A stretch of DNA of 43,700 nt from Planctomycetota bacterium (GTDB lineage Bacteria; Planctomycetota; JAJSAM01): assembly GCA_025459285.1 (NCBI GenBank), contig JALOQY010000001.1:1-43700 (forward strand), given 5' to 3'. A model generated the notes under the pieces. The model worked only from the letters and a program-made list of their open reading frames with translations, ran no database searches and was not told the DNA's origin. The position numbers and the translations under genes are program-made. Position 1 is the stretch's first letter; each line of letters starts with the position of its first letter. Below are positions 8,252-29,663 of this stretch, one piece after another.

Positions 8252-9247
8252 GTGGTGCTCTTCCCGGACGCCAGTCCCGACCGGCCGGTCTACCTGTCCT
8301 GCGACTGCGGGGGCCGGCTGACGCTCGATGCACCTCCCGAGAGCTGGCCCCTCGCCTGCCCCGGCTGCGGGCGCCCGCTCGTCCGGGTGGATGGTGCGAC
8401 CATCGGGTCGCCGGGGGCGGGGACGAAGCTCCTGGCCTCCACCGGCGCCACGGAGGTCCCGGCGCGGGTCGTTCCGCTCTCCGGAGCGGTGGAGCGGTTC
8501 CGCTCCGGCCTGCCCGCTCCGCGGGAGACCGAGCCCGTCATGGAGATCGCGGGGCGGGACTTCCGGAATCGCCCGGTGCGGCGCATCGTGAAGGTCGAGC
8601 CGCCGGAGACGTTCGGCATGGAGACCTTCGCCCTCGCGCTCTGGCTCGCCGTCGTGCTCGGCGTGATGCTCGGCCACGCGCTGCTCACCGAGGCGGAGTT
8701 CACCGCCGTCAGCGTGCTCCTGTCGAGCGCGCTGTTCGCCGGCGCGACCGTGGTCTTCGTCCTGCTCCAGACCTCCACCGTGTTCCCCACACTCCGTCAG
8801 CCGTCCCGGGCCGGGCCGTGGTTCACCTTTGCCGCTGCGGGCGTGCCGGTGTCGGTGGGGGTGGTGGCGCTCTACTTCCGCGCGCTCCGGGGCTCGGGGG
8901 AACTGCCCCTCTCGGACCCGCTGCAGGACCTGCTCCGGGACCCGGCGTCCTCGCTCCCGATCCTGGTCCTCGCCGTGGGCGTGATGCCCGGCTTCTTCGA
9001 GGAACTGGGATTCCGGGGCTGGATGCAGTCCACCTGGCGGGAGATCGTCTCCCCGCGCCGTGCCATCGTGCTCACCGCCTGTGTCTTCACGGTGGTCCAC
9101 TTCTCGATCCTGTCGATCGCCTGGCTCCTCCCCATGGGGCTCTGGCTCGGCTGGCTCCGGGAGCGCTCCGGGAGCCTCTGGCCGGGCGTGCTCGCCCACG
9201 CCGGCCACAACATCGGCATGGTCCTCCTCATGCGATTCACTGGCTAG
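8252..9247 (+). CDS. CPBP (CAAX-type) intramembrane metalloprotease with N-terminal zinc ribbon
   Basis: 331 residues. Cys17, Cys19, Cys36 and Cys39 form a zinc ribbon near the N-terminus. Membrane helices begin around residue 125. The CPBP/Abi catalytic signature is complete: E250-E251-x3-R255 (FFEELGFRGW), H283 (VVHFS) and H316 with N320 (HAGHN). Family members cleave membrane peptides, including prenylated CAAX substrates in eukaryotes and processed peptides in bacteria; the substrate here is unknown. The GTG at 8252 is followed by a second GTG, so the start could be 3 bases later. The stop TAG is part of a repeated palindrome (9243-9305). Confidence 0.85.
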   Translation: MVLFPDASPDRPVYLSCDCGGRLTLDAPPESWPLACPGCGRPLVRVDGATIGSPGAGTKLLASTGATEVPARVVPLSGAVERFRSGLPAPRETEPVMEIAGRDFRNRPVRRIVKVEPPETFGMETFALALWLAVVLGVMLGHALLTEAEFTAVSVLLSSALFAGATVVFVLLQTSTVFPTLRQPSRAGPWFTFAAAGVPVSVGVVALYFRALRGSGELPLSDPLQDLLRDPASSLPILVLAVGVMPGFFEELGFRGWMQSTWREIVSPRRAIVLTACVFTVVHFSILSIAWLLPMGLWLGWLRERSGSLWPGVLAHAGHNIGMVLLMRFTG

Positions 9248-9305
9248 CAGCCCTTCGGAGTAAGCCCTCATGCGCGCGGGAGCTTCTCGGCGACGGGCCG
9301 CTGGC
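9243..9305. repeat. Stop-codon palindrome, copy A
   Basis: 63 bp element beginning GCTAGCAGCCC and ending GACGGGCCGCTGGC. Its TAG (9245-9247) is the stop codon of the preceding gene. It matches the reverse complement of copy B (29602-29663) at 55 of 62 positions. Probable hairpin terminator or REP-type element. Confidence 0.8.
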
Positions 9306-9324
9306 GGCCGCCGGGGGGAGCGGT

Positions 9325-9330
9325 TAGAAT
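9325..9330 (+). promoter_or_regulatory. Candidate -10 box for the GYF_2 operon
   Basis: TAGAAT. Predicted start near 9337 leaves ~18 bases of leader that include GGGGAGGGA, a good ribosome site for the GTG at 9356. Confidence 0.45.
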
Positions 9331-9355
9331 GCGGCACCCCGGGGAGGGACGTGCC

Positions 9356-9967
9356 GTGGGTATTGCCATCAACGTGATCATCGCCGTCGTCGGCGGAGTA
9401 GTCTGCGCCGCCGTGGCCGCATCGAAGGGGCGGAACGCCGTGGGCTGGTTCTTCTTCGGGTTCCTCCTCCCGCTGCCCGGCATCATCGTCGTGCTGGTGG
9501 TTGCCAACCTGAAGACGGAACGGGCGCGGTTCGAGCACGCCGCGGCGGAGCGGCGCCGGCTCCGGGAGGAACTCCGCCTCGAGCGCATGCGGAACCAGCA
9601 GTTCCGGAGCCTCGCGCAACAGCGCCTCGATGTCCATGACCGGGCTCTCGGTGTCGACACCCGGCACCTCGCGCCGTCCCTCGGGGCGGCGGGCGACCCG
9701 GTGCGCGAACTCGGGCCGTCCGTGGCCGCGGCGACCGCGGACCCGCCACTCGCGCAGACGGGCGCGCCTCCCGTCGCTCCGCCGCCGGCCATCTGGCACT
9801 ACGCCACCCACGACGGCGTCCAGCGGGGGCCGGTGCCCTTCGAGGACCTCTGCCTGGCGTGGCAGTCGGCGGAGATCGACGGGGGATCGCTGGTGTGGAG
9901 GGCCGGGTGGAAGGACTGGCACCGCGTCGCCGACGTTCCCGAACTCCTCAACCGGCTGGAGGTCTGA
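9356..9967 (+). CDS. Membrane protein with C-terminal GYF_2 (DUF4339) domain
   Basis: 203 residues from GTG 9356; an ATG at 9329 lies inside the -10 box and is rejected. Residues ~2-18 and ~27-46 are two membrane helices separated by SKGRNAVGW, like small phospholipase D-nuclease-type membrane hairpins. A charged coiled-coil-like stretch (ERARFEHAAAERRRLREEL) follows, then a Pro/Ala linker. Residues ~148-195 match GYF_2: WHYATHDGVQRGPVPFEDL, then GGSLVWRAGWKDW. GYF_2 domains are thought to bind peptides near membranes. First gene of a three-gene operon; the next begins 1 base after its stop. Confidence 0.75.
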   Translation: MGIAINVIIAVVGGVVCAAVAASKGRNAVGWFFFGFLLPLPGIIVVLVVANLKTERARFEHAAAERRRLREELRLERMRNQQFRSLAQQRLDVHDRALGVDTRHLAPSLGAAGDPVRELGPSVAAATADPPLAQTGAPPVAPPPAIWHYATHDGVQRGPVPFEDLCLAWQSAEIDGGSLVWRAGWKDWHRVADVPELLNRLEV

Positions 9968-9968
9968 C

Positions 9969-10838
9969 GTGGACGGCGAACGGGGAGTCGCGAGGTTCGA
10001 CGGGCTCTTCACCGGGGCCTTCGCGATCCATCCGGGCCTCGAGGGCGAGCGGGAGGAAGCGATCCAGGCCCTGCTGGCGGCCTCTCCGGTCCGCTTCCAG
10101 GTCCAGCGGGAGCCGGGCGCGGCCACCCTGCTGCCCGATCTTTCCCCCGTGGAGTTCACGGTGCCGAATCGCCCCTCGGAACGCCTGCTCGGCGCGCTCC
10201 GTGACTTCGTCCTCTCCCTCGGGCCCGAGGGAGAGTGGCGCGTGGAGAGCACGCTCCGCGTCCAGGAGTTCGTCGGGAACCGGGTGTTCGAAGGGGTCTA
10301 CGTCCACGAGGACCTCGCGGGCATCACGCTGACCGCCCGCGAGCGGGCGGCGCGACCCGGGGAGGCGCCGTGTTCGCCGCAGGGGGGGGTCGCGGAACGG
10401 GCCGAGACCTTCGCGCGGCGGTGGCGGTGGCCTCTCGTGGGCGCCGCCGCTGTTCTCGCGGTGCTCGTGCTCCTCGGTTTCCAGACCGGGTTCCTCGGCT
10501 TCGGGGCGAGCGGCGTGGAGGGGCCGGCCATCGATCCGGGTCCACTCGCGGCCATCCTCGAGTTCACGGTGGTCCGCGGGGCGGGAGGAAGGCTCACGTT
10601 CCACCTCCGGCCGGGTCCCGAATTCGCCCGATTCCCGGAGGTCGCGGCATCCTGTGACCTTTCACCGGGCGTGTTCCGCGTGCTCCTCGTGAAGGAGAGG
10701 CGGGCTTCGGGTCCGATCCTCGCCCTGGATCTGCGGGACCTGCCGAGTCGAGCCGCGAAGCTCGGGGCCGGAGAGACCCTCACCGAAAGCCTTCCCTGGA
10801 ACGGCGCGAAGTTCGACGAGGTCCTCATTTGCCGTTGA
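9969..10838 (+). CDS. Unknown single-span membrane protein
   Basis: 289 residues, GTG start 1 base after the upstream stop, so probably translationally coupled. I do not recognise the family. Residues ~1-130 look like a soluble alpha/beta domain (GLFTGAFAIHPGLEGEREEA, then repeated strands through VYVHEDLAGITLTA). Residues ~154-178 are a membrane helix (WPLVGAAAVLAVLVLLGFQT). Residues ~190-289 form a second soluble domain rich in beta strands with a single Cys (AASCDLSPGVFRVLLVKE) and a terminal ICR. GC3 is high throughout, as in neighbours. The 3' end overlaps the next gene's TTG start by 10 bases. Confidence 0.6.
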   Translation: MDGERGVARFDGLFTGAFAIHPGLEGEREEAIQALLAASPVRFQVQREPGAATLLPDLSPVEFTVPNRPSERLLGALRDFVLSLGPEGEWRVESTLRVQEFVGNRVFEGVYVHEDLAGITLTARERAARPGEAPCSPQGGVAERAETFARRWRWPLVGAAAVLAVLVLLGFQTGFLGFGASGVEGPAIDPGPLAAILEFTVVRGAGGRLTFHLRPGPEFARFPEVAASCDLSPGVFRVLLVKERRASGPILALDLRDLPSRAAKLGAGETLTESLPWNGAKFDEVLICR

Positions 10839-12081
10839 GGACGCTGCTCCTCGCCCTGCTGGCGCTGCCCCTTCTCCCCGCTCCCCGGACCGCACCGGCT
10901 CTCGTGCCGGTGCGGGTGGACTTCCCGGCCGGGGCGGATCCCGCCCTCGCCGTACCGGTGACCGGCGGTGTCCCGTTCCCGGCAGGGGCCGTGGCCGAAG
11001 CCTCCCGGGTCCGGCTCGTCCGGGGCGAGGAGGAGGTTCCCGCCCAGGCCGACGTCACCGCCGTCTGGCCCGACGGCAGTGTCAAGTGGCTCACCGTCTC
11101 GACCGTGCTGGCGCCGATCGCGGCACGCGACCTCGCCCTCCAGTACGGAGCGGGAGTGGAGCGAGCGGCGGTGCCGGACCCGGTCCCGGTGCCCGATTCG
11201 GCGTTCCGGGTTCGGGTCGGCGGGCAGAGCGTGGACCTCGCTCTCCGCCTCGAAGTGACCCGTGTCCGGGGTCCGGACGCCTTCGCCGGTCCGGGGCGGC
11301 GCTGTCTCGATCCGAAGGGTGCAACCGCCGGGGACACCGTGGAATCCGGATCCTTGGAGGTTGAATTACGCGGCCCGGTCCGCGCCCGGGTCCTCGTCCG
11401 CGGCGCCTTCCGGATCCCGGGGTTCGGCGCCACGCTGCCCGACCAGGTTCGGGCGGTGGAGCCGGCGGAACGCGTGCCGTTCACGTTCCGGGTCACGGTC
11501 TTCCGGGGACTCCCGATCATCCTCGTGGACCACCAGATCGTCTACACCGGCGAGCCGGACCGGGACTTCATCCGGCGCTGGGCACTCGTGCTGCCGGACC
11601 GCGGGGCGGGGACGGAGCGGCTCGTCCTGGAGCCGGGAGTCACGATCGACCGGCGGGATGGCGGCGAAACGACCATCCCCGAACCGGCCGCGCGCCTCTG
11701 CCGCGCGCCGATCGCCGGCGGCGTCGCCCTCCTGCGCAACGGGTTCGAGGACCGTCCGGCCCGCGTGGGAGGGCCGAGAGGCCGGGACGCCGCCGTCGAC
11801 TTCTGGCCGGTGGAGGCGGGTCCCTTCGACCTCTCGATGATCTCGACTACGGCGGGAACATCGGTCTTTTCGCGCTCCGGTTCCTCCTGTCGGAGACGCA
11901 CCAGGTCGGACCGGGTCCGTGGAAGGAGAGGCTCGCGGACCTCGGCATCGAGCCCCGTGAACTGCTCCTCTCGATGGAGTGGCGCGAGGGCCTCCGCCGC
12001 CACTGCGAGAGGCGCGGCGTCCGCTACGACCCCGACCGCCCCGACGAGAGCGTGCGGCGTCTGATCGCGACGTACCGCTAG
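10829..12081 (+). pseudogene. Frameshifted RIFT-barrel (exo-rhamnogalacturonan-lyase-like) protein
   Basis: Begins at TTG 10829 with a signal peptide (LRTLLLALLALPLLPA). Residues ~20-330 resemble the N-terminal RIFT-like barrel of PcRGLX/YetA-type exo-rhamnogalacturonan lyases: VPVTGGVPFPAGAV, then WPDGSVKWL, and later IILVDHQIVYTGE. Around 11820-11838 the GC3 pattern leaves this frame and continues one frame over as DDLDYGGNIGLFALRFLL ... RRLIATYR, ending with TAG at 12079-12081. One inserted or deleted base explains this. The protein is also far shorter (~415 residues) than full lyases and lacks the large alpha/alpha barrel. Either a decayed gene or a sequencing error in a short RIFT-only protein. 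The function of the ~80-residue tail is not recognised. Confidence 0.6.
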
Positions 12082-12084
12082 CGG
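12075..12084. other. Palindromic double stop of convergent genes
   Basis: CCGCTAGCGG is a perfect 10 bp palindrome. It holds the TAG stop of the forward gene (12079-12081) and, on the other strand, the TAG stop of the CYTH-CHAD gene (12080-12078). Confidence 0.7.
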
Positions 12085-13634
12085 AAGCAGGCCGGCAGGC
12101 CGCGGCGGATGAAGATCCGCCAGGCCTTGCGGAAGCCCGCGCGGGCGGTCTCGGCGGCCTCGTCCTGCGTGCGGATCAGCTGGCCCATCGCCAGCGCCGT
12201 CCGGAGGGACTGCTTGCCGCGCGCGGGAAGTGCCGCGGCGAGCCGGCGCAGCTCGTGACCCGCGACGAAGGCATCCTGGTGCGCGCCGAGCAGGTCCTGC
12301 AGCGCCGTGAGGCGAGCGACGAGCGGAGGCGCCTGACGGGCGTAGAGAGGAGCGAAGGCCTCCGCGGCGTAGCGCAGGCGCTTGCCGAGGATCCGGAGCC
12401 GGTGCAGTTCCTCCGGTCGCGGGTTACGGGCGTGGATGCTCCCGCCGTAACGCGCGACCTTCCTGAACGCGCGCCGGACGATGGCCGGGGCGGCGACGAG
12501 CACCGGCTCGCGGGCCGGGAGGAGGGTCGGCCGGCGGGCCGGGCCGCGCGCCAGGAAGGCGTCGAAGCCGGTCAGGAACCGCTCGCAGCGCCGGGAGTCG
12601 AGGGTTCGCAGCAGGTCTCTCCGTGCCCGCGCCCGGCGCCTCTCGAGGCTGTGACGGAAGGGGATGAGGTGGGCGCGGTCCTCCTCGGGCAGGGGCGCGG
12701 CGTAGGCATCGATGTTGCCCAGATAGACGTCGAGGTCGCGCACGGCGCCCAGGGCGGCGGCGATGTGCCGGAGGTGGACGACGAAAGCGGTGGCCCGCTT
12801 CTCCGGGAGCGCCCCGGCGAAGGTGCGGAAGGCGGCGCGGAGCCGGCGGGTGGCCACGCGCATGTCGTGGAGCGCCTCGGGGTCTTCGCCGAGCCGGGTC
12901 CCCGGCTCCCGGGACTTCACCTTCTCGAACTGCTGGCGCAGGACGCGGAACGCCGTGTCGACGAGGCGGTCCGTGCGGCGGGGCACGACATCGAAGACGC
13001 GGTCTTTGCCGCGCGCCCGCTCGAAGAGCTCGAGCGCGAGGAGTGCGCGCTCGAGCTTGGTCCGGGTCGAAGGCTCGAGCCCCCGGACCTCGAGGCATTC
13101 CCTCGCCGCGGCATCGAGCGTTCCCGCCGGGGCTCCCCGATCCTCGATCTCCACCTCCAGGAACGACTGGACTGTGGACCGTCCGTCGCCGTCGAGGATC
13201 GCGACCCGGTCGAGTGCCAGCTCGGCGTCCGCGCCGAGTCTGAAGTGGATCCGGTGGGTCCGAATCCGTGCGACGGCTTCGATCGCCCGCCCCGACAGCA
13301 GAGGGGCGAGTCTCCGCGAGATTGCGCCGTCGGGGCGGAAGATCGTGCGGGAGGGCAGGAGGTCCTCGGTCATCTCGCCGCGGTCCCGCCAAGGGGCGAG
13401 GGAGGAGGTCACCTCCTTCACGGTGGCTTCCCGGGCGGCGTCCTTCGCACGAACGCGGAGGGAGAGGCCGGCCCGGTAGAGCCGGAAGTCGCCCGTGTCG
13501 TAGTAGGTGTCCTCGTGGCGGCTCTCGCCGGCCGCGGTGAGCGGCAACCCGCCGAGAACGGGGGTCGCGGCCAGCGCGGTGAGCTGCTCCTCGGAGGAGG
13601 CGGTCCACTTGATTTCGAGTTCGCGGCCTTCCAT
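12078..13634 (-). CDS. CYTH-CHAD domain protein (polyphosphate related)
   Basis: 518 residues, ATG at 13634 behind GAGGAGG and 4 bases after the ppx-like stop. The CYTH domain (residues ~1-200) opens with the ExExK signature in MEGRELEIKW and continues with DTYYDTGDFRLYRAGLSLRV, the triphosphate-tunnel pattern. The CHAD domain (~220-518) has the conserved His/Arg helices: ALHDMRVATRRLRAAFRTF, then LHRLRILGKRLRYAAEAFA. CYTH enzymes act on triphosphates such as inorganic tripolyphosphate; CHAD domains bind polyphosphate. Pairing with a Ppx/GppA gene strongly supports a polyphosphate role. Which activity the CYTH part retains cannot be told from sequence. Confidence 0.9.
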   Translation of the reverse strand: MEGRELEIKWTASSEEQLTALAATPVLGGLPLTAAGESRHEDTYYDTGDFRLYRAGLSLRVRAKDAAREATVKEVTSSLAPWRDRGEMTEDLLPSRTIFRPDGAISRRLAPLLSGRAIEAVARIRTHRIHFRLGADAELALDRVAILDGDGRSTVQSFLEVEIEDRGAPAGTLDAAARECLEVRGLEPSTRTKLERALLALELFERARGKDRVFDVVPRRTDRLVDTAFRVLRQQFEKVKSREPGTRLGEDPEALHDMRVATRRLRAAFRTFAGALPEKRATAFVVHLRHIAAALGAVRDLDVYLGNIDAYAAPLPEEDRAHLIPFRHSLERRRARARRDLLRTLDSRRCERFLTGFDAFLARGPARRPTLLPAREPVLVAAPAIVRRAFRKVARYGGSIHARNPRPEELHRLRILGKRLRYAAEAFAPLYARQAPPLVARLTALQDLLGAHQDAFVAGHELRRLAAALPARGKQSLRTALAMGQLIRTQDEAAETARAGFRKAWRIFIRRGLPACFR

Positions 13635-13638
13635 GGCC

Positions 13639-15174
13639 TCAGGCCTCCTCGATGCGGACTTCGAGACCGAACACTTCGGCGAAGAGACCGGTCTTCTCCC
13701 GCGCTGCCCACTTGGAGAGAGCCAGATCGCCGTCGGCCCTGACCCGAAGCCGGAGCTTGTCGCCATTGCGCTCCGCGTGGACGGACCGGACGCGCTGGGC
13801 GTGATCGCGGTCGAGGAGGTCCGCCGTGCGGAGAATGGCGGCGAGCTTGCGGACCGTCTCCCGGTCCTTGACCGTAAGCGCGTCGAAGTGGTCGTGCTGG
13901 CGGGTGGGGTGGCGGCGGCGATGGTAGCGGGCAACATTCGCGGCGAGCTGGCGCTGGCGTCGATCGAGGCCCACGATGTCGGACTGAGAGATGAGGTAGT
14001 GGGAGTGTTTGTGGTGTGAATCGGCGGAGACGTAGAGGCCGACGTCGTGGAGGATGGAGGAGGCTTCCAGCAGGGACCGGGCCTCCGAGGGGAGTTCGTG
14101 CAGATCGGCGAGCTGGTCGAAGAGGGAGAGGGCGAGTTCGGTCACCTTGAGCGCATGAGGCTCGTCCAGGGCGTAGCGCCGTCCCAGGCCGAGGGCGGCG
14201 GCGCGGATCTCCCGGCGCCGGGATTCGAGGGCCCCCTTCCGCTCGAGTTCCTCTACCAGGTCGAGGAGGATGCCGTCCTTCAGGCCGACTCCGGGTACGA
14301 GGATCCGGTCCACCTTGAAGACGTCCGCGATCTTGGTGCAGACAACGGCGGCGGGCAGGATGACGTCGGCGCGATCCTCGCGGAGGTTGAACTCCGTGAC
14401 CCGCTGGCGGAAAGTGCTCGAGGCGAGCCGGAGCACGAGATCGCGCAGCGCGCCGACGGAGACGGCCCGGCATCCGCCGTCGAGAGCGGGCGGTCCCTTC
14501 AGGTCCTGGCCCGCGATCTCCGCGAGGCTCTCCGCGGAACCCCCGGTGGCGGCCACGAAGTCCACCGGCTCGCGTCCCAAGGCGGTGCGGATCCGCGCGC
14601 GGATGGCGTCCACGTAGTGGTCGAGGAGCGAGAGGAAGTCGTTGCCCTTGCCCCGGCCGGGGACGGGGAGCGCCTCGAGCAGCCGCACGGCTCCGAACGG
14701 GTAGGACTCGGCACGGACGACGTCGCCGTGGTCGATGACGAGGACCTCCACGCTGCCGCCGCCGATGTCCACCGCGGCGGAGCGCCCCTTCGAGAGATCC
14801 AGGCGGCTGCCCACGGCCCGGCGGACCAGGTGGGCCTCCTCGGCGCCGTCGATCACGGTGATGGTGAGGCCCGTCTCAGCCCGGATCCGCTCGACGACCT
14901 CGGCCGAGTCCGAGGCCTCCCGGAAGGCGCTCGTGGCGATCGCCCGGACGTGTTCCGCGCCGTGGCGCTCGATGGCCCGGAGGAACTGCCGGAGGGCGGA
15001 GATCGTGCGCCCGGCGGCGGCTTCGCCGATCCGGCCCATGAGGAACACCTGCGTGCCGAGGCGCACCGGCTCCCGGAGGTTCTCCAGGACGCGAACTTCC
15101 CCCCGGGCGCCTGCTTCCGCGACGAAGCAGCGCATGGCGTTGGTGCCGATATCGATGGCCGCGAACCGACTCAC
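13639..15174 (-). CDS. ppx: Ppx/GppA family exopolyphosphatase
   Basis: 511 residues. GTG at 15174 is chosen: the protein then starts VSRFAAIDIGTNAMR, the phosphate-1 motif of the ASKHA fold, and GGGGG lies upstream. Phosphate-2 motif: AAVDIGGGSVEVLVID. The C-terminal part has an HD-type domain with ASSILHDVG and HKHSHYLI, as in long Ppx/GppA enzymes. Family reaction: removal of terminal phosphate from polyphosphate, or pppGpp to ppGpp. The downstream CYTH-CHAD gene favours polyphosphate. First gene of a two-gene operon, divergent from the cytochrome gene. Confidence 0.9.
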   Translation of the reverse strand: MSRFAAIDIGTNAMRCFVAEAGARGEVRVLENLREPVRLGTQVFLMGRIGEAAAGRTISALRQFLRAIERHGAEHVRAIATSAFREASDSAEVVERIRAETGLTITVIDGAEEAHLVRRAVGSRLDLSKGRSAAVDIGGGSVEVLVIDHGDVVRAESYPFGAVRLLEALPVPGRGKGNDFLSLLDHYVDAIRARIRTALGREPVDFVAATGGSAESLAEIAGQDLKGPPALDGGCRAVSVGALRDLVLRLASSTFRQRVTEFNLREDRADVILPAAVVCTKIADVFKVDRILVPGVGLKDGILLDLVEELERKGALESRRREIRAAALGLGRRYALDEPHALKVTELALSLFDQLADLHELPSEARSLLEASSILHDVGLYVSADSHHKHSHYLISQSDIVGLDRRQRQLAANVARYHRRRHPTRQHDHFDALTVKDRETVRKLAAILRTADLLDRDHAQRVRSVHAERNGDKLRLRVRADGDLALSKWAAREKTGLFAEVFGLEVRIEEA

Positions 15175-15184
15175 GCGAACCCCC

Positions 15185-15196
15185 AATGTAACTCTA
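15185..15196 (-). promoter_or_regulatory. Candidate -10 region of the ppx operon
   Basis: Minus strand reads TAGAGT (15196-15191) then TACATT (15190-15185), the latter ending only 10 bases before the GTG at 15174. Either could be the -10 box; both predict a very short leader. The intergenic 15175-15342 otherwise shows nothing but the facing promoter. Confidence 0.35.
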
Positions 15197-15328
15197 CAAG
15201 ATTAGCGATCCGCGCCGCTCTCCACGACGCAGATTCCCCGTCTTTATGAAAGCTTGACCGGTTGACGAACTTGGGGCCTGGCCGCAAAGTGATCAGGATG
15301 AAAGCACGGCCGGCCACACCGACTCTCG

Positions 15329-15334
15329 TAGAAT
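15329..15334 (+). promoter_or_regulatory. Candidate -10 box for a leaderless transcript
   Basis: TAGAAT followed by 8 bases (TCCCCGCC) and then the ATG at 15343. No ribosome-binding sequence is present. Confidence 0.5.
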
Positions 15335-15342
15335 TCCCCGCC

Positions 15343-15747
15343 ATGAGACCGAGAATCATCGCCGTATCCCTTGCCGTGGTCGTGGCCGCCCTGCTGGTCG
15401 GAACCCTCGCCGGCCGGGCCATCGGGGACGAGGACGAAGTGAAGGCCGCCGCCGCCCTGAAGAAGGCGGTGGATGAGGGCAACCGTCTGTTCCGGGATGC
15501 CGCCCTCGGCTCTGGCGGGAAGGCGTGCGCGGCGTGCCATGAGGATCCCGAGAGGCCCAAGCTCGCGCTGGCCTCCCGCGCCGGCGGCTACCCGAAGTGG
15601 GACCGCCGCGAGGACGCGGTCATCACGCTCGGGCAGAAGATCCGCCAGATGATCGAGAAGAACCTGAAGGGGACCCCGCCGGAACTCGGCTCGGTCGCCC
15701 TGGTATCGCTCGAGGCCTACATCGCCTCGCTCGCCAGCGCCCGCTAG
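15343..15747 (+). CDS. Exported small c-type cytochrome
   Basis: 134 residues. Signal peptide or anchor at residues ~4-24 (IIAVSLAVVVAALLVGTLAG). One covalent haem site, CAACH, in GGKACAACHEDPERP; the preceding GNRLFRDAALG is typical of class I cytochrome c starts. A likely axial methionine is in IRQMIEKNLKG, and the last helix is VSLEAYIASL. Electron carrier in the periplasm; partner unknown. Closest general resemblance is to short SoxA- or cytochrome-c peroxidase-like haem domains, but not enough to name it. Stop TAG lies inside palindrome copy C. Confidence 0.85.
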   Translation: MRPRIIAVSLAVVVAALLVGTLAGRAIGDEDEVKAAAALKKAVDEGNRLFRDAALGSGGKACAACHEDPERPKLALASRAGGYPKWDRREDAVITLGQKIRQMIEKNLKGTPPELGSVALVSLEAYIASLASAR

Positions 15748-15809
15748 CAGTCCGTCGGGGTGAAGGGTCGCACCGCAGAGATCGTCCTTGGCCCCGACGG
15801 GCTGCTAGC
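15743..15809. repeat. Stop-codon palindrome, copy C
   Basis: 67 bp with arms 15743-15766 and 15786-15809 that pair at 21 of 24 positions (GCTAGCAGtCCGTCGGGG against its complement). The TAG at 15745-15747 ends the cytochrome gene. The distal arm also carries GCTAGC. Strong hairpin; likely terminator or REP-type element. Confidence 0.85.
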
Positions 15810-15848
15810 CTCGTACCTCCCGGGGCCGTCTTCTGGTGAAATGGTGGC

Positions 15849-17647: not shown

Positions 17648-17654
17648 GAATCGA

Positions 17655-17686
17655 AAGAGGCGCGGAACCGGAGTCCCGCGCCTCTT
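17655..17686. terminator. Bidirectional hairpin terminator
   Basis: Perfect 11 bp stem AAGAGGCGCGG (17655-17665) with CCGCGCCTCTT (17676-17686), 10-base loop, between the convergent rlmB-like and TRL-like genes. On the minus strand it is followed by a T-rich tail (TCGATTCTC). Confidence 0.8.
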
Positions 17687-17707
17687 CCCGTCTTCGGTCC
17701 CGGGCGA

Positions 17708-20004: not shown

Positions 20005-20005
20005 T

Positions 20006-22255: not shown

Positions 22256-25200
22256 GACCATTCCTCCGAACCCGCCGAAAGCGGGAATCTCCCGAGCGTC
22301 GCCTCGAGCGCCGGGAGGAGAACCGGCACGGGGCGCACCTGAAGGATGAAGACACGGCTCCTCTCGATGCCGAACTCCACGTCCACCGGATGGCCGAAGA
22401 CCTCCTCGAGACGGGCGGCAAGGCGGACGAGTTCGGCGAGTTCCACGTACTCGAGCGCCGGCCGCAGGCGCTGGTGATAGAGGCTCTCCGCGCGGATCGT
22501 GCCCCGACCGGCGCGGCGGTCGAAGACGATCCGTTCCCGTTTGTCCGCCACCGCGTAGCTCATCCGGAAGCCGCCCCGCGTCAGGTCTCCCTCCTTCGAG
22601 ACGGTGACGTGGTCCGCGGCGACCGTGCCGGAGACGATGCCCTCTCCGAGCCCGAGTCCGGCATTGATGACCATCTCGCCCTCCTCCCCTCGCGCCACGT
22701 CCACGGTGAGCAGCACTCCGGACACCCGGGAGTCGACCATGCGCTGGACGAGGACTCCGCCGCCCCCGGCGCCGGGGCCGAAGAGAGTCCGGTTGTGGAT
22801 CGCGCGCTCCGTCCAGAGACCGCTCCAGCAGTTCGCGAGCGTTTCGAGCAGGGCCGCCTCGCCCCGGACGAAGAGGAAGGTCTCGAACTCGCCGGCGCGG
22901 GACGCGGCCTCCGCGTCCTCCTCGCGGGAGGAGGAGCGTACGGCCACGAACGTCTCCTCCCCGTCCGGTCCGAGGGCCCGGTAGGCCGAGCCGATCTCCT
23001 CGGCGAGGTCCTTCGGGGGGCGAACCTCGGCGAAGAGCCCGCGGATGAGCGCGGCCTTCTCGGCGGCGGTGGGCCCGTCGCGCGCGAGCACGGTGTCGAT
23101 GGCCGCGCGGAGGCTCCCGGACCGGCTCCGCTCGGCGGCGAGTCGCGGAGCGACCTCCGCCAGCGGACAGTCGAGAACGCGGCGCAGCGCGGCGTCGGTG
23201 ACCGTGAACCAGGGCGGCACGAACTCGGCCCCGAGGATGCGGGCGGTCTCCGCGAGGTTCGCCGCCTTGGCCCCCGCCAGCGGCAGCAGTTCGAACCCGC
23301 CGTCGGCGGCGGTGAGGATGGTCCGGCCGGCAAGGCGCCGCTCGCGCTCCGCGTCCCGGGCCGCAAGGTCTCTCGCCGGTCGCGCGAGGTCCTCGTGCCC
23401 GCCCTCCGGCGTTCCGAGCAGGGCGTCCGCGCGCGCCGCCCGGCGCAGCAGATGGCGGAGGTGGGGGTGCTCCGGTGAGATGGAGATCGCGGCGGCGTCG
23501 CGCAGTTCGTGGAGCCTCCGGCGGGCAAGTACATCCAGCGGGGCGGTGGAAGGCGCCCCTCCCGCGGGACCGGCGAGGGCCCTCGTGGCCCGTAGGGCTT
23601 CGAGGCGGGGGGCCAGCACCTCGAAGAGGCCGATGGCGCGCGGAATGCGGTCCTCGGCCCTCCGGAAGGCCCTCCGGCGGCGTGCCTCGAGTTCGCGGGC
23701 GGTCTGCGCGACGAAGGTCGGGACCACCGCCGTGACGGCGGGGTTCTGTCCGAGGGTCGCGAGGAGTTCCTCGCGATCCGTGACGGTCTCCCCGAGCAGG
23801 AGCTCCCGGACCGCGAACCGCGCGAGCACGGGATCGACGAGGCGCCCGAGCACTTTCGCCACCTGATGTCGGGCGCGCAATCGCCGGCCGCGGAGCACGA
23901 GCGCGTCGGCATCCGACGGGGCGGCGCCGAGGCACTGCTCGGCCTTCGCGAGGTGGCGCAACCCCTCGGCGAGGGCGAGGGTGTCACGGTCCTGGCCCAG
24001 GACTCGCAGGGTTCCGGCGGTGGCGTTGAGGACGAGGAGGTCCCCTTCGACGAGTCGGTGTTCGCGTTCCCGGAGGTTCCGGCGTTCGCCGATCCGGAAG
24101 CCGCGGACCTCGTATTCCTCCTCCCGATACTCGGGAACGGTGAAGAGGAGGATCGGAGCTCCGGAGGCATCCGCCGTCCAGCGTCCGGGGATCACCAGCG
24201 CGGGTTTGCGGAACTGGAGCGCGATGAGCCCGGCGTGGGAGAGGGCGCCCCCTCCGGTGGAGACGACGCCCGCCGCGCGGTAGAGGCCCGGGGTATCCTC
24301 CGGCCGGACCGCGGCCTTCACGAGGATGGCGCCCTCGAGGGCTTCCGCCGGGGTATCGCCGTTCCCGAAGACGGCGTGGCCGGAGGTCCGCCCGGGAGCC
24401 GCCGGCAGTCCGGTGATCACCCTCTCCCCGGGAAGTGGCCCCGGCTCCCGGACCAGATCCCCGGCGGCGATTTCGCGGAGCAGCCGCCGGGCCTCCTCGC
24501 GGGCCTCGGACGAGGACGGCTCGACCTCCACCAGGGGGAAGTTGGCCCGGCGGAGCTTCCCGGCGAGAGCCGGCAGCGGCACGCCGGGGCACCGGGCGAG
24601 TCGGATGATCCCCGCCTCGTCGCGCAGCACCGACAAGGCCAGTCCTTCCCCGGGCAGACCCAGCCGCGCGCTGAGGACGTCACGGCCCGCGACGTGGCCA
24701 ATGGTCCGGAACGACAGCGTCCGCGCCACGGGTCCCGTGAGGCGGGCGCAGGCCACCGCCTCGGCCACCGCGGCCTCGCCCTCCGCGAGGAGCTCCGCGA
24801 ACCGCACCGCCTCGTGCCGTCGGCCGGAGGCGGGCCGCGGGCCCTCCGGCCCCGGGATGATCTCGCCGCGGGCCAGGGCTTCCGCGAGTGGGGTGAGGAC
24901 CGTCTCTTCGAGCCGGATCTGCCCGAGGGCCCGCCTCCGGTCTTCCCCCCCGAACGATGGCTCGGGCAGGCGAAGGGCGGCGAGTCCGGCCGCGAGACGG
25001 TCGAGGAGCCCCGGGAGGGGCGGGCCGCCGAAGCGGTCCCCCGGGGGGCCCTCGCCGGTCCACGGGATCTCCTTCTCGCCGAGGGGACCCCGCTCGATCG
25101 CGGCGAGGACGCCCCGGCGGTCCTTCGTGAGGAGCGCGCGCAGGGGAAGCGCGCCGTGGCGCGCGAAGGACGCCGCCCACTCCTCCGCCAGCGTCTCCCG

Positions 25201-27030
25201 GGCCCCGGGCGGGAGATCCAGGGAGCCGAGGACCCAGTCGAGATCCATGAGATACGGCGCGAGGCGCAGCATCGCCGCGGCCCGGTCGCAGAGCGTCCCG
25301 AGGTCCACGACCGACTCCTTGTCCGCCCGCGCGTGGACCCGCGTGCCGCGGACTTCCACGTCGAAGCCGAGCGCGGCGAGGAAGGCGCGAAGAGACTCGA
25401 GGCCCGGTGCCGGGTGGGCGTCCAGCTCGTAGTTGCTGACCCCGAAGAACTCGAGGTCCACCATCCCGCCCCGCAGTGGGGGCGAGAGGTCGAGGCGCAG
25501 GAACGCCGGGTGGTTGCGGAACGAGAGATAGACGTGGACCTCGTTGCCGTAGGAGTGGACCTCCACCCAGGGGAACTTCTCCTGTCCGGCGAGGAGTTGT
25601 CGCGCGATGCCGTCGAGGGCGGCGCGCACGGGCCAGGGGAGGCCCGCGTCGCCGGAGAAGTCGGCGTACTTCACCACCTTCGCGCTGGCGAGGCGCCCCT
25701 TCGTCGCCACGACGACGTCGGCGGTGCGGCGCGGCGCCCGCCCGGCGCCGACGAACGAGAAGCCGAGGCGCAGACCGCGCTGGTGGAGATAGCGCTTCAG
25801 GCCGTGCAGCGTGCGGACCTCCCCCAGGTTCCGAGGGTCCTCGAACGCGTTCACGAGCCGGGTCAGCTCCGGGGACAGATGCTCCCGGCCGGCCTCGCGC
25901 CCGAGTTCCCGCGCGATGGCGTCGCGGAGATCCCGCCACGCCCCGGGGAGGAGCGCGCACTCTTCCGAGAGGTTCGCGAACAGCGCGATGAAATCTTCAA
26001 CGACCGCGCCCATGTCGGCGACGAGCGACTGTACGCGTTCCTTCGTCAGGGGCGCGAGATCGAGGATCCGCTCGAGAAGGGCGGCGTGACGGAGGTTGAG
26101 CGTGCGGAAGCGGTCCACGGGGGCGCCGGTTTCGCGCGCGTTGTCCGGACTGCCGGCCTCCCCGCCGTGGGCGAAGAAGATGACCGATTCGCCGGCGCGG
26201 CGGAGCCCGTCCGCGCCATCGAGGAGGGAGGCGGCGTAGGGGGGAACGAACAGCGGCAGGGCGCCGCCGGTGACGAAGCCCGCGAGGCGCTTCGCCTCGA
26301 TGCCGTGGTTCACCCTGGCCCAGCCGAGAGAGGCGACGACCTCGCGGAGGAGCTCGAAGCCGGCGACTTCCTCCGCCCGGCGCATGGCCGCGACGGTGCC
26401 GGCCGTCAGGTGCGAAAGATCGAGGTGCGACGCCCGCGTGTAGTCGAGATACCCGGCCAGGAAGTCGTGATCCGCGGGGGCGAGAAGCTGCCGGGCGGTC
26501 TCTGGTGGGGCGGGTTCGCCGGAAAGATCGAGGATGCGGGCGGCCAGCCTCCGGACGCTCTCGTCGCGGGCGTCGAGGAAGTGGCCGGTCAGCGGCCCCG
26601 CGCGGGCGAGGATGCGCCCGGCGTCGGCGATGGCGTCCGGTCCGGCGAAGGGCGAGTCATCGATCTCGACGCGCTCCGCGATCGCGGCGAGGATCGCCCC
26701 GCCGGGGAGTGCGTCCCGCTCCGCGGCGAGACGCAGCGCGCGGCGGGCGAGTGAGGGGTCGCGCGCGCCAAGGAGCGATCTGAAGAGGGGCCAGGGATCC
26801 GCGAGACCGGCGGCGGCCTCGGCGAGGAGGTCGAAGACCGGCACCAGGACCGCGCCCGCCCGCTCGCCGAGGAGGTCGCCGAGAGGGTGGAGCGGGGCCG
26901 GGTCCGGAAGCGGGAAGTACCGGCGGAGTCGATCGCAGTGGCCGGCGACATCCACGGGATCGGCCGTCGCGAGCCGCGCTGCGGCGGCCACGCGCCCGAC
27001 AAGGTCGGCGATCTCGTCCCGCGAGGACAT
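22252..27030 (-). CDS. Large phosphohistidine/ATP-grasp dikinase with GWD-like domain order
   Basis: 1592 residues. Residues ~1-850: large region of unknown fold, with a segment WVEVHSYGNEVHVYLSFRNH at about 490. Residues ~860-960: PEP-utiliser swivel domain with phospho-accepting His932 in GGGALSHAGLIALQFRKPAL. Residues ~1240-1585: nucleotide-binding ATP-grasp domain of the PpsA/PPDK type (AGAKAANLAETARILG, VAVRSSSREEDAE with Arg1365, GLGLGEGIVSG, ending VFILQVRPVPVL). The TIM-barrel PEP/pyruvate domain is absent. In PEP synthase the ATP-grasp part comes first; here it is last, the order known from glucan and phosphoglucan water dikinases. Likely reaction: ATP-driven transfer of phosphate through His932 to a substrate bound by the N-terminal region. 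Forms an operon with the MaeB-like gene. Confidence 0.8.
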   Translation of the reverse strand: MSSRDEIADLVGRVAAAARLATADPVDVAGHCDRLRRYFPLPDPAPLHPLGDLLGERAGAVLVPVFDLLAEAAAGLADPWPLFRSLLGARDPSLARRALRLAAERDALPGGAILAAIAERVEIDDSPFAGPDAIADAGRILARAGPLTGHFLDARDESVRRLAARILDLSGEPAPPETARQLLAPADHDFLAGYLDYTRASHLDLSHLTAGTVAAMRRAEEVAGFELLREVVASLGWARVNHGIEAKRLAGFVTGGALPLFVPPYAASLLDGADGLRRAGESVIFFAHGGEAGSPDNARETGAPVDRFRTLNLRHAALLERILDLAPLTKERVQSLVADMGAVVEDFIALFANLSEECALLPGAWRDLRDAIARELGREAGREHLSPELTRLVNAFEDPRNLGEVRTLHGLKRYLHQRGLRLGFSFVGAGRAPRRTADVVVATKGRLASAKVVKYADFSGDAGLPWPVRAALDGIARQLLAGQEKFPWVEVHSYGNEVHVYLSFRNHPAFLRLDLSPPLRGGMVDLEFFGVSNYELDAHPAPGLESLRAFLAALGFDVEVRGTRVHARADKESVVDLGTLCDRAAAMLRLAPYLMDLDWVLGSLDLPPGARETLAEEWAASFARHGALPLRALLTKDRRGVLAAIERGPLGEKEIPWTGEGPPGDRFGGPPLPGLLDRLAAGLAALRLPEPSFGGEDRRRALGQIRLEETVLTPLAEALARGEIIPGPEGPRPASGRRHEAVRFAELLAEGEAAVAEAVACARLTGPVARTLSFRTIGHVAGRDVLSARLGLPGEGLALSVLRDEAGIIRLARCPGVPLPALAGKLRRANFPLVEVEPSSSEAREEARRLLREIAAGDLVREPGPLPGERVITGLPAAPGRTSGHAVFGNGDTPAEALEGAILVKAAVRPEDTPGLYRAAGVVSTGGGALSHAGLIALQFRKPALVIPGRWTADASGAPILLFTVPEYREEEYEVRGFRIGERRNLREREHRLVEGDLLVLNATAGTLRVLGQDRDTLALAEGLRHLAKAEQCLGAAPSDADALVLRGRRLRARHQVAKVLGRLVDPVLARFAVRELLLGETVTDREELLATLGQNPAVTAVVPTFVAQTARELEARRRRAFRRAEDRIPRAIGLFEVLAPRLEALRATRALAGPAGGAPSTAPLDVLARRRLHELRDAAAISISPEHPHLRHLLRRAARADALLGTPEGGHEDLARPARDLAARDAERERRLAGRTILTAADGGFELLPLAGAKAANLAETARILGAEFVPPWFTVTDAALRRVLDCPLAEVAPRLAAERSRSGSLRAAIDTVLARDGPTAAEKAALIRGLFAEVRPPKDLAEEIGSAYRALGPDGEETFVAVRSSSREEDAEAASRAGEFETFLFVRGEAALLETLANCWSGLWTERAIHNRTLFGPGAGGGGVLVQRMVDSRVSGVLLTVDVARGEEGEMVINAGLGLGEGIVSGTVAADHVTVSKEGDLTRGGFRMSYAVADKRERIVFDRRAGRGTIRAESLYHQRLRPALEYVELAELVRLAARLEEVFGHPVDVEFGIERSRVFILQVRPVPVLLPALEATLGRFPLSAGSEEWS

Positions 27031-27053
27031 GGCGCCCTGTGCGCGGCCCGTGG

Positions 27054-27059
27054 ATTGTA
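27054..27059 (-). promoter_or_regulatory. Candidate -10 box of the dikinase operon
   Basis: Minus strand TACAAT, start near 27047, leader ~17 bases before the ATG at 27030. No clear -35 box and no strong ribosome site. Confidence 0.45.
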
Positions 27060-27110
27060 CGCTTCCGCGGAGCGCGGCGCCACCCCGTTGTGGCGACCGT
27101 CCGGCCTGGC

Positions 27111-27137
27111 CGCCCGTCGCCGAGAGGCTGCTAGCGG
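27111..27137. repeat. Stop-codon palindrome, partial copy D
   Basis: Reads GCCCGTCGCCGAGAGG joined directly to CTGCTAGCGG: the left arm of copy B fused to the outer end of the right arm, as after loss of the centre. The minus-strand TAG (27133-27131) is the stop of the membrane-protein gene. Confidence 0.6.
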
Positions 27138-27646
27138 CGTGAAGCGAGGCGGACGATTCCGGAGCCGAGGAGGCCGAGGAGGGCCACCGCGGTCCCGGTG
27201 AGGAGCAGGGCAGCCGTGCTGCTGACCCCGTTCGCGATGTCTGCCGGGGTCACTTGTGCGCTGAGCCGGCCGATCGTGTCCATGGCGCCCCGCAGGCCAG
27301 TCAGGGCGCCGAGCAGCGCGAAGAGGAACGCCGCTTCGCCGAGGCCCCGGACGAGCGCACCCCAGCAGGGCCACGCCCCTTCCCGGCGCACCGCGCAGGC
27401 CCCGAGCAGTGTGGCGGCGAGCACGGCGACCCCGAGCGCGAGGAGGGTCCACTGTCCCCACCCGCGCGCGGTGCCCACCCCCGGAAAGCCGGTCCCGGGC
27501 CTTCCCGTGTCCGGCCCGGCCGCCTCGGCCGCTTCGACCGTCCAGTCCGTGATTCGCACGGCGGGGATCTGCACGAAGGTGAAGGGCAGCGTGAGGAGCA
27601 GGAGTACCACCGCACCCCGCGCCGCGACGAAAGCCGCTCGTCCCAT
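27131..27646 (-). CDS. Small membrane protein, possibly MotA/TolQ/ExbB-like
   Basis: 171 residues. GGGAGG precedes the ATG at 27646, preferred to the upstream frame start at 27679. Four membrane helices: AFVAARGAVVLLLLTLPFTF, WTLLALGVAVLAATLLGACA, then a long one around FLFALLGALTGLRGAMDTIG, and the last, STAALLLTGTAVALLGLLGS. The pattern LTGLRGAMDTIGRLSAQVTP followed by DIANGVSSTAALLLTG recalls the C-terminal half of MotA/TolQ/ExbB proton channels, but the protein is short and no ExbD/TolR partner is adjacent. A TAGAGT box ~35 bases upstream could be its -10. Confidence 0.5.
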   Translation of the reverse strand: MGRAAFVAARGAVVLLLLTLPFTFVQIPAVRITDWTVEAAEAAGPDTGRPGTGFPGVGTARGWGQWTLLALGVAVLAATLLGACAVRREGAWPCWGALVRGLGEAAFLFALLGALTGLRGAMDTIGRLSAQVTPADIANGVSSTAALLLTGTAVALLGLLGSGIVRLASRR

Positions 27647-27727
27647 GGTCCGCCTCCCGGCTGTTCGATCCGGGGTCACTCTACCGGATGCGGCAGTCGC
27701 GGCGCAAGCAGGCGAAACGACTCCGAG

Positions 27728-28540
27728 TCACTTCGTCGTTTCGCCGAACAGCTCGCGGAAGAAGGACTCCGTCGCGGCGAAGGAGCGGCGGGCGGCCTTC
27801 TCGTCATAGGCGGAGCCGCGCGAGGGGTCGCTGCCGGCGCCGGGGTCGGAGAAGGAGTGGACCGCACCGCCGTAGAGGATCATCTGCCAGTCGGCCTCCG
27901 CCGCGTCCATCTCGGCGGTGAACGTCCGGACGTGCTCGGCGACCACGTGGGGATCCGCCGCGCCGTGGAGCACCAGGACCTTCGACCGGAGCGTCTCCGC
28001 GGCGGCGGGGAGGGGCGTGTCGAGGTTGCCGTGGAAGGAGACGACGCCCAGGACCTCCGCGCCGGACCGCGCCAGTTCGAGTACCGTGCCGCCGCCGAAG
28101 CAGAACCCCATCGCGGCGGTGCGCGCGGGATCCTCCCGCGGGTGGGCCTTCAGGAAGGCGAGACCCGCCGCCGCGCGGGCCCGGAGCAGGGGGCGGTCGC
28201 CGCGGTACTTTCCGGCCTGCCGGGAGGCTTCCGCCGTGTCCGCCGGCCGGACGCCCTTCCCGTAGATGTCCGCGGCGAGGACGACGTACCCCAGGCGGGC
28301 GAAGCGGCGAGCCGTCTCCTGCTCGTGCGGGCCGATCCCCTTCCAGGCGTGGACCACGAGGACGCCCGGGAGGTTCGTCGCCTCCCCCGGGGGCTGCGCG
28401 AGGAAGCCCTCCAGCACGGTCTCCCCGTGCCGGTACTCCACGGTTCCGGTCACGACGTCGGGCTCCGGGTCGCGCTCCGCCGCCGCCGGTGCGCAGGCCG
28501 CCGCGGCGAGGGCGAGGAGGATGATGTGCGCGTGTCTCAT
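27728..28540 (-). CDS. Dienelactone hydrolase family lipoprotein
   Basis: 270 residues, ATG at 28540. Signal peptide with lipobox AAAAC (IILLALAAAACAPA). Alpha/beta hydrolase of the DLH type: LVVHAWKGIGPHEQETARR (oxyanion region), nucleophile Cys in AAMGFCFGGGTVLEL, Asp in HGAADPHVV and His in GGAVHSFSDPG, giving the Cys-Asp-His triad. DLH enzymes open dienelactones in chlorocatechol breakdown; exported members have broader, mostly unknown esterase roles. Anchored in the membrane facing the periplasm by prediction. Divergent from the AbiEii-like pair. Confidence 0.88.
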   Translation of the reverse strand: MRHAHIILLALAAAACAPAAAERDPEPDVVTGTVEYRHGETVLEGFLAQPPGEATNLPGVLVVHAWKGIGPHEQETARRFARLGYVVLAADIYGKGVRPADTAEASRQAGKYRGDRPLLRARAAAGLAFLKAHPREDPARTAAMGFCFGGGTVLELARSGAEVLGVVSFHGNLDTPLPAAAETLRSKVLVLHGAADPHVVAEHVRTFTAEMDAAEADWQMILYGGAVHSFSDPGAGSDPSRGSAYDEKAARRSFAATESFFRELFGETTK

Positions 28541-28632
28541 GGTCCCATGCTGCCATGGACGGGCTAAAATAGGACAAGAACATCCGAAATATGTCGGCCG
28601 GCCGGGCGCTTCCCGCCCCGGGCGGCGTCCGA

Positions 28633-28638
28633 TACAAT
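28633..28638 (+). promoter_or_regulatory. Candidate -10 box for a leaderless transcript
   Basis: TACAAT, 8 bases before the ATG at 28647, with no ribosome-binding sequence between. Drives the small gene and the nucleotidyltransferase behind it. Confidence 0.5.
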
Positions 28639-28646
28639 GCGCCGCA

Positions 28647-28943
28647 ATGTCGCCTCTCTGTCCGACTCGCGAAGAACTCCTCGTGGATTGCCGGGGTCGT
28701 CCCTATTTCCTCTGGGACTGCGAGCTGACGCTGGACGAATTCCGCGCGAAACTCCGGACGGGAGACCGTGCGCAGCGGGCCTACCTCGCCGGGAAGCTCA
28801 TGCGCCAGGCGAAGCCCGACGACGTCTTCTCCTTCGTGAGTCTCTCTGAGATCCGGGACCTCTGGCCCGACCTGGCGGGCACCCTCGGCCGCACGCGCGA
28901 CTTCTGGGAGTGGATTCTCGGCGAGTGGGGGGTGGTGTCATGA
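28647..28943 (+). CDS. Small partner of the AbiEii-like nucleotidyltransferase (putative antitoxin)
   Basis: 98 residues. Acidic and helix-rich, with several Trp (FLWDCELTLDEFRAKLR, IRDLWPDLAGTL, DFWEWILGEWG). I do not recognise a named domain. The stop overlaps the start of the nucleotidyltransferase (ATGA), a coupling typical of toxin-antitoxin pairs, with the small gene first. Calling it an antitoxin is inference from order, size and overlap. Confidence 0.55.
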   Translation: MSPLCPTREELLVDCRGRPYFLWDCELTLDEFRAKLRTGDRAQRAYLAGKLMRQAKPDDVFSFVSLSEIRDLWPDLAGTLGRTRDFWEWILGEWGVVS

Positions 28944-29605
28944 CCGACTCGCGACTGACTCCCCTCCAGCAGAATGTCCTCGGGACCCTGGCCGGCATCG
29001 AACCGCCCTGGACCCTGACGGGGGGAGGCGCCCTGGCCGGCTTCCACCTGTGTCACCGCGCAACGCGGGATCTCGATCTGTTCTGGCACGCTCAGGTGAA
29101 GCTCGGTCCGTGGAGGGAGGAGTGCGCGCATCGCCTGCGCGACGCCGGATTCGAGGTCGCGATCCTGCAGAGGTTCGACACCTTCGAGAGGCTCCTCGTG
29201 TCGGACGGTGCCGATCGAGTGGTCCTGGACCTGGTCGCGGAGCCGGTGCCGGCGATCGAGCCGCCGCAGCAGGTCCCTCTCGGTGCCACCCGGATCCTGG
29301 TGGACACGCCGCACGAGATCCTCGTGAACAAGCTGTGTGCGCTTCTCGGCCGGGCCGAGCTCAGGGACCTCCACGAGCTGAGGGAACTGCTGGCCGTCGG
29401 AGGCGATCTCCCGCGGGCACTCCGCGACGCGCCACGGAAGGACGGCGGGTTCTCCCCGCTCATGCTGGCCTTCCTGCTCCGCGACATGCCCGTGGAGATG
29501 ATGGCCGCGGCGAGTGGACTCGGCGAACCGCTGGCCGGGGAACTCCTCCGCTTCCGCGACGAACTCGCGCCGCGCCTGCTCGCCGCGGCACGGCCCGGGC
29601 ACTAG
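28940..29605 (+). CDS. Nucleotidyltransferase, AbiEii/AbiGii toxin family
   Basis: 221 residues from the ATG in the ATGA overlap. The DNA-polymerase-beta-like signature is present: GGGALAGFHLCHRATRDLDL (GG ... D-L-D), third acidic residue in VVLDLV, and the AbiEii-type motif EILVNKLCALLGRAELRDLH. AbiEii-type toxins (type IV TA, including MenT relatives) transfer nucleotides to RNA or protein and arrest growth or block phage. The family also has members without shown toxicity. Codon use is like its neighbours. The stop TAG lies in palindrome copy B. Confidence 0.85.
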   Translation: MTDSRLTPLQQNVLGTLAGIEPPWTLTGGGALAGFHLCHRATRDLDLFWHAQVKLGPWREECAHRLRDAGFEVAILQRFDTFERLLVSDGADRVVLDLVAEPVPAIEPPQQVPLGATRILVDTPHEILVNKLCALLGRAELRDLHELRELLAVGGDLPRALRDAPRKDGGFSPLMLAFLLRDMPVEMMAAASGLGEPLAGELLRFRDELAPRLLAAARPGH

Positions 29606-29663
29606 CGGCCCGTCGCCGAGAGGCTTCCGCGCGCCTGAGGGCTTACGGCGACGGGCTGCTAGC
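29602..29663. repeat. Stop-codon palindrome, copy B
   Basis: 62 bp; arms CTAGCGGCCCGTCGCCG (29602-29618) and CGGCGACGGGCTGCTAG (29646-29662) pair at 16 of 17. The left TAG (29603-29605) ends the forward nucleotidyltransferase; the right arm's minus-strand TAG (29661-29659) ends the opposing gene. One element supplies both stops of a convergent pair. Confidence 0.85.

What the first reader, a model, noticed from the sequence alone, without database searches (positions are those of the whole stretch)
9243..29663. A palindromic repeat family that carries the stop codons of its neighbours
Three long copies (9243-9305, 15743-15809, 29602-29663) and two partial or degenerate ones (27111-27137, 42551-42598) share GCTAGCAGCCCGTCG and its complement at the other end. 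A and B agree at 55 of 62 positions. In copies A, B, C and D the TAG inside the element is the stop codon of the adjoining gene, and B ends both genes of a convergent pair. Ordinary REP elements lie after the stop; here the outer edge of the element is the stop. They may be mobile terminators that insert at gene ends, or conserved stop-plus-terminator modules.
Basis: seen in the sequence. Interest (0 to 1): 0.72.

Follow-up and report, generated by a model that had tools for sequence, protein, structure and literature searches.

The report
Stop-codon-homing palindromic IS1182 mini-transposons
About 200 tiny hairpin-shaped mobile DNA pieces in this planctomycete genome have settled mostly at the stop codons of genes, because the jumping enzyme they depend on inserts at CTAG, a sequence this genome has largely purged except at stop codons, and the insertion copies the CTAG so that the gene still ends properly.

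Summary
The window lies in a planctomycete MAG. I found 153 copies in 1.28 Mb (estimate ~200 genome-wide), in 61- and 65-bp subfamilies. In 87 of 129 arms with a gene stop within 60 bp, the stop codon ends exactly at the element's core; no other offset holds more than 5. The elements are miniature, single-end derivatives of an IS1182-family insertion sequence whose ends are CTAG-hairpin-CTAG. Relatives carry intact IS1182 copies with such ends, and one case (G010) shows filled and empty paralogous sites: one CTAG stop becomes CTAG-IS-CTAG and the stop is kept. Orthologues without the element end at the same residue in most genes tested, so the stops are native. CTAG is strongly depleted genome-wide; 59% of CTAG stops are occupied, against 2% of CTGA and 0 of 229 GTGA stops. 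Non-stop CTAGs erode with element age; stop CTAGs do not. Intrinsic-terminator function is not supported: no U-tract. CTAG targeting itself is known (IS5, MITEPsy1), so this is a new variant: a MITE family whose niche is the stop codon. Unexplained: the stem-base tetranucleotides of one hairpin co-vary as inverted complements.

The parts
9244..9304 (+). Element copy, 61a subfamily: CTAG 9244-9247 (TAG = stop of gene 8252-9247), 53-bp core 9248-9300, eroded CTGG 9301-9304
15744..15808 (+). Element copy, 65b subfamily: CTAG 15744-15747 (TAG = stop of gene ending 15747), 57-bp core 15748-15804, CTAG 15805-15808 not a stop
   Evidence: RNA fold -49.5 kcal/mol, z -8
29602..29662 (-). Element copy, 61a subfamily: CTAG 29602-29605 (stop of + gene 28940-29605), core 29606-29658, CTAG 29659-29662 (stop of - gene 29659-30351); convergent pair
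   Evidence: fold -45.7 kcal/mol
27106..27134 (+). Internally deleted copy; CTAG 27131-27134 is the stop of the - gene 27131-27610
42580..42593 (+). Degenerate copy, right arm only recognisable (CGACGGGCTG + CTGG); not fused to a stop
8252..9247 (+). Gene ended by copy 9244 (CAAX protease, Rce1-like PF02517)
15376..15747 (+). Gene ended by copy 15744 (cytochrome c, SoxA/TsdA PF21342)
28940..29605 (+). Gene ended by copy 29602 (AbiEii-like nucleotidyltransferase PF08843)
29659..30351 (-). Gene ended by copy 29602 from the other side (no Pfam match)
27131..27610 (-). Gene ended by the deleted copy (no Pfam match)

Best explanation
The repeats are miniature, non-autonomous mobile elements (53- or 57-bp palindromic cores with inverted ends CAGCCCGTCG...CGACGGGCTG) that correspond to single ends of an IS1182-family insertion sequence and are moved in trans by its transposase. 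The transposase inserts at the tetranucleotide CTAG (context GCTAGC) and leaves CTAG on both sides. CTAG is strongly depleted in this genome, and a large share of what remains is ...C-TAG stop codons, so stop codons are a main available target. Because the insertion duplicates CTAG, the gene keeps its TAG; because CTAG is its own complement, two convergent genes sharing one CTAG each keep a stop. The stop-side CTAG is then kept by selection (drifting only among stop codons), while the other side erodes to CCAG or CTGG. Shown here: copy number, exact stop alignment, native C-termini in most genes tested, CTAG preference, erosion with age, IS1182 linkage, one filled/empty pair. Inferred: trans mobilisation of the lone hairpins, and neutrality of insertion as the reason for their success.
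For: 87 of 129 arms with a stop within 60 bp have it at offset 0, next commonest offset 5. Occupancy of stops: CTAG 61/104, CTAA 11/16, GTAG 7/127, CTGA 6/289, GTGA 0/229. Orthologues without the element of Rho, an aminoacyl-tRNA synthetase, RRF and ferredoxin end at the same residue or nearly so. CTAG: 213 in 1.28 Mb against 875 expected, 107 of them in elements. Non-stop CTAG falls 54, 23, 12, 9% with core divergence (p 1e-6); stop CTAG does not (p 0.43). IS1182 transposase between two hairpins in L117 and L132; intact IS1182 with CTAG-hairpin-CTAG ends in G006 (L229) and beside tandem hairpins sharing one CTAG in G005 (L231). G010 L230: IS1182 between two CTAGs at the TAG stop of a gene ending DGNTWRRLP*; its paralogue in the same locus has 44 identical bp, one CTAG, then GCGCCG in both. 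Replication: 17 stop-fused arms in G006, 5 in G005, 2 in G001. Orientation: convergent gaps 35% occupied, tandem 8%, divergent 12%.
Against: No same-species strain without a given copy was available, so there is no true allelic empty site for a G000 hairpin. Transposase copies assembled in G000 are broken or partial. At sites where the tetranucleotide is not CTAG, the two sides do not match as direct repeats, and in G006 and G003 they match as inverted complements, which a plain 4-bp duplication does not predict. In copies with identical cores the outer tetranucleotide has already changed in several, so erosion must be faster there than in the core, or the core is renewed by conversion or replacement. 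No Vsr repair gene was found that would explain fast CTAG loss. One ortholog test (CPSase) ended 10 aa earlier than its relative.
Confidence: 0.84

Rival explanations
1. Stem-loop replacement: as proposed for IS1272 (IS1182 family), incoming hairpins replace older hairpins at long-occupied sites (or cores are homogenised by gene conversion), so fresh cores sit between old, eroded CTAG feet; the first colonisation still used CTAG stops.
For: Twelve copies share an identical 57-bp core but have different outer tetranucleotides. IS1272 targets inverted repeats, replaces them and gives no target duplication (PMC5678879). Outer tetranucleotides show inverted rather than direct matching.
Against: CTAG on the non-stop side declines with core divergence, which replacement would blur. 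G010 shows a single CTAG becoming two with no hairpin lost that I can recognise. CTAG erosion is independently expected from its genome-wide depletion.
Confidence: 0.3
2. The CTAG belongs to the element, which lands near gene ends and supplies a new stop codon.
For: CTAG is at most ends of young copies; half of all CTAGs in the sample are in elements.
Against: Offset 0 against the next reading frame is 87 to 5, not about 1:1; orthologues end at the same residue in most genes tested; CTAA, CTGA and TTAG stops also occur at offset 0; tandem elements share one CTAG.
Confidence: 0.05
3. Host-beneficial stop-plus-terminator or mRNA-3'-end modules under selection.
For: Strong hairpins (-31 to -50 kcal/mol) at gene 3' ends, commonest between convergent genes.
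Against: No T-run downstream: 15% T, genome 14.6%, 2 of 87 with TTTT; gene ends without CTAG mostly lack them; identical copies in unrelated places indicate recent spread. RNA stabilisation is not excluded.
Confidence: 0.1
4. REP/BIME sequences moved by a tyrosine (RAYT) transposase.
For: Palindromic, extragenic, tetranucleotide at the ends; REPs occur in planctomycetes (PMC3733652).
Against: The only Y1 transposase hit in the assembly is flanked by a different repeat and has none of these arms nearby; the arms flank an IS1182 transposase instead.
Confidence: 0.03

Closest known systems
MITEPsy1 (Pseudomonas syringae)
   Same: Short MITE, 4-bp target duplication, target CTAG or YTAA (PMC3189936)
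   Different: 100 bp, IS5/ISPsy2-related ends, six copies, no stop-codon association reported in the passages read
IS1182 family: IS1272, ISPsy36
   Same: Same transposase family (NF033551); IS1272 deals with palindromic targets; ISPsy36 is reported with a 4-bp palindromic target, GGCC (PMC8027508)
   Different: IS1272 replaces inverted repeats without duplication; here CTAG is the target and lone hairpin ends are amplified to about 200 copies
IS5
   Same: Target Py-T-A-Pu, most often CTAG, which is duplicated (PMC5493358)
   Different: Different transposase family and ends; no stop-codon niche described in the passages read
REP/BIME and REPIN elements
   Same: Small high-copy extragenic palindromes ending in a tetranucleotide
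   Different: GTAG or CGTC tags (PMC3733652), GTAG ones tied to tyrosine transposases; not known to be fused to the stop codon
PATEs and SMRs of Haloquadratum
   Same: Fused or lone palindromic IS ends spread as mini-elements (PMC3119063)
   Different: IS605-type or unknown transposase, different targets

Membership tests
MITE of an IS1182-family element | Terminal inverted repeats shared with a transposase-bearing element of that family in the same genome | tested here: met
   Arms flank an IS1182 transposase (NF033551) in L117 and L132; same kind of ends beside IS1182 genes in G001, G005, G006
MITE of an IS1182-family element | No own coding capacity, short length | tested here: met
   53-57 bp cores
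MITE of an IS1182-family element | Target duplication | tested here: inconclusive
   CTAG on both sides of many young copies, one filled/empty paralogue pair, but non-CTAG sites do not match as direct repeats
MITE of an IS1182-family element | Mobilisation in trans by the transposase | not testable with these tools
   Needs a transposition assay
REP element with RAYT | Tyrosine (Y1) transposase flanked by the repeats | tested here: not met
   Single Y1 hit L309 without these arms
Intrinsic terminator | Hairpin followed by a T-run | tested here: not met
IS1272-type stem-loop replacement | Target inverted repeat removed, no duplication | tested here: inconclusive
   G010 pair shows 1 to 2 CTAGs; identical cores between eroded feet would fit replacement

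The most novel reading that the evidence does not exclude
The element's target is chosen by pairing: the tetranucleotide at the inner foot of the end hairpin pairs with the target tetranucleotide, so a changed inner foot (CTAC, CTCG, ATCG) retargets insertion (GTAG, CGAG, CGAT). That would be structure-guided target choice by a DDE transposase.
Probability: 0.06. Interest if true: 0.9.

Novelty: new variant of a known kind. Interest (0 to 1): 0.58.

Why it matters
It shows how a mobile element can reach high copy number with little harm: it targets a tetranucleotide that a genome has largely purged except at stop codons, and its target duplication hands the stop codon back, even to two convergent genes at once. 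It makes testable whether CTAG avoidance and CTAG-specific transposons shape each other, and it warns that stop codons and 3' ends in such genomes are shared with mobile DNA. The co-varying hairpin feet give a handle on how IS1182 transposases recognise ends and targets.

Tried and rejected
Rfam: no match in the window. Direct target duplication at non-CTAG sites: not found. One-ended target model (variable 5' side, constant 3' side): suggested by 65a copies but explained by which side is the stop. Vsr-driven CTAG loss: no vsr gene found (assembly 88% complete). Terminator: no T-run. RAYT: rejected. Integron attC: considered from the CTAA/TTAG ends, dropped because copies are dispersed among chromosomal genes without a cassette array (inference; no integrase search was made). 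Viral contigs: no exact match. Paper searches for elements inserting at stop codons found none, within the open-access library only.

Full report
Observation. The window is one contig (C374) of a 5.03-Mb, 534-contig genome; a genome of the same order (G005, the record reached as G004) is titled Planctomycetota. The palindromes reported are present and belong to a genome-wide family: 105 hairpins with exact 10-bp arms against 0 in the reversed control. In 104 stretches (1.28 Mb, chosen mostly because they carry copies) I found 153 copies with at most 6 arm mismatches, 74 of 61 bp and 63 of 65 bp. Scaling by exact-arm counts (76 in the sample, 105 in the genome) gives about 200 copies in all. 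Four subfamilies (65a, 65b, 61a, 61b) share the arms but differ in the loop.

Where the element ends. Conservation rises from about 70-90% in the outer CTAG to 92-99% from the first C of CAGCCCGTCG, apart from one C/T position, so the core is CAGCCCGTCG...CGACGGGCTG and the CTAG lies outside it.

Stop codons. With a codon-score gene caller of my own, none of 137 copies lies inside a predicted gene. Of 129 arms with a gene stop within 60 bp, 87 have the stop ending exactly at the core and no other offset exceeds 5. Those stops are CTAG 58, CTAA 11, GTAG 6, CTGA 5, TTAG 5, others 2. Twelve copies abut the stops of both genes of a convergent pair, including 29602 in the window. The stops are native: orthologues in relatives end at the same residue or within a few for Rho, an aminoacyl-tRNA synthetase, RRF and ferredoxin, are variable for LptB, and 10 aa longer for one CPSase. 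In the sample 61 of 104 CTAG stops are occupied, against 6 of 289 CTGA and 0 of 229 GTGA.

CTAG. The tetranucleotide is depleted: 213 in the sample against 875 expected from trinucleotides; 107 lie in elements and 42 of the other 106 are stops. The base before CTAG is G in 62% of arms against 36% genome-wide, with no clear trend with age, so the target looks like GCTAGC. On sides that are not stops CTAG falls from 54% in the youngest copies to 23, 12 and 9% in older ones, turning mainly into CCAG or CTGG; on stop sides it stays. The simplest reading is that fresh copies have CTAG on both sides.

The engine. L117 (713-2026) and L132 (5034-6229) show a 65b hairpin, a broken transposase and a 61a hairpin. 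The transposase is IS1182 family (NF033551, E 4.5e-56, below the curated whole-protein cut-off because the gene is broken). Several contigs break inside the same inner sequence, as repeated IS copies would cause (inference). Better preserved relatives occur in the same order: G006 L229 has a transposase frame between two CTAG-hairpin-CTAG ends; G005 L231 has an intact transposase beside two hairpins that share a single CTAG; G010 L230 has a related IS (end GAGCCCGTTGCGG) at the TAG stop of a gene ending DGNTWRRLP*, and its tandem paralogue in the same locus is an empty counterpart with 44 identical bases, one CTAG, and GCGCCG after the CTAG in both. Only this one pair was found, and the paralogues diverge soon after the CTAG.

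Replication. G006 has 39 exact-arm hairpins, most of them ends of internally deleted elements of a few hundred bp; 17 arms are stop-fused, plus 5 in G005 and 2 in G001. A Lentisphaerales MAG (G003) has three hairpins with the same arms.

Function for the host. The hairpins are stable (-31 to -50 kcal/mol) but no T-run follows, so they are not canonical intrinsic terminators. Convergent gaps are occupied most often (35%, against 8% tandem and 12% divergent). Protection of mRNA 3' ends remains possible and untested.

What does not fit. Identical cores with already eroded feet need fast CTAG erosion, gene conversion, or replacement of older hairpins as described for IS1272 (PMC5678879). No vsr gene was found. 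In G006 and G003 the outer and inner feet of a hairpin co-vary as inverted complements, in several cases while the other end of the element keeps CTAG. Arm-to-arm correction is the plain reading; target choice by pairing is the novel one.

Known or new. CTAG-type targets with 4-bp duplication are known for IS5 (PMC5493358) and MITEPsy1 (PMC3189936), and ISPsy36 of the IS1182 family is reported at GGCC (PMC8027508). I found no report of a family occupying stop codons, within an open-access library only. I rate it a new variant of a known kind.

Noticed in passing
window 36801-36883; L309:1145-2619: A second palindromic mini-element with ends GGGGACGTACGTACC; the same ends flank the only Y1 (tyrosine) transposase found in the genome, so it looks like a TIR-associated tyrosine transposase family.
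   Followed up: partly
L229:3019-3251 (G006): A 233-bp MITE with ends CCCGGACTATTCATG sits between CTAGs next to an IS1182 copy; the outermost CTAG is the stop of a TrkA-like gene, so two unrelated elements share one CTAG stop.
   Followed up: partly
G006 L261, L264, L267, L270, L275, L285, L287, L292; G003 L178, L182: Tetranucleotides at the two feet of one hairpin co-vary as inverted complements (GTAG..CTAC, CGAG..CTCG, CGAT..ATCG, CTGG..CCAG, CTAA..TTAG).
   Followed up: partly
L058:3749-3771: A minimal 23-bp palindrome CTAGCAGCCCGTCGGGCTGCTAG, arms without loop, at a stop codon.
   Followed up: no
G000 as a whole: CTAG is four- to eight-fold depleted although no Vsr repair gene was found; the cause is unknown.
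   Followed up: partly
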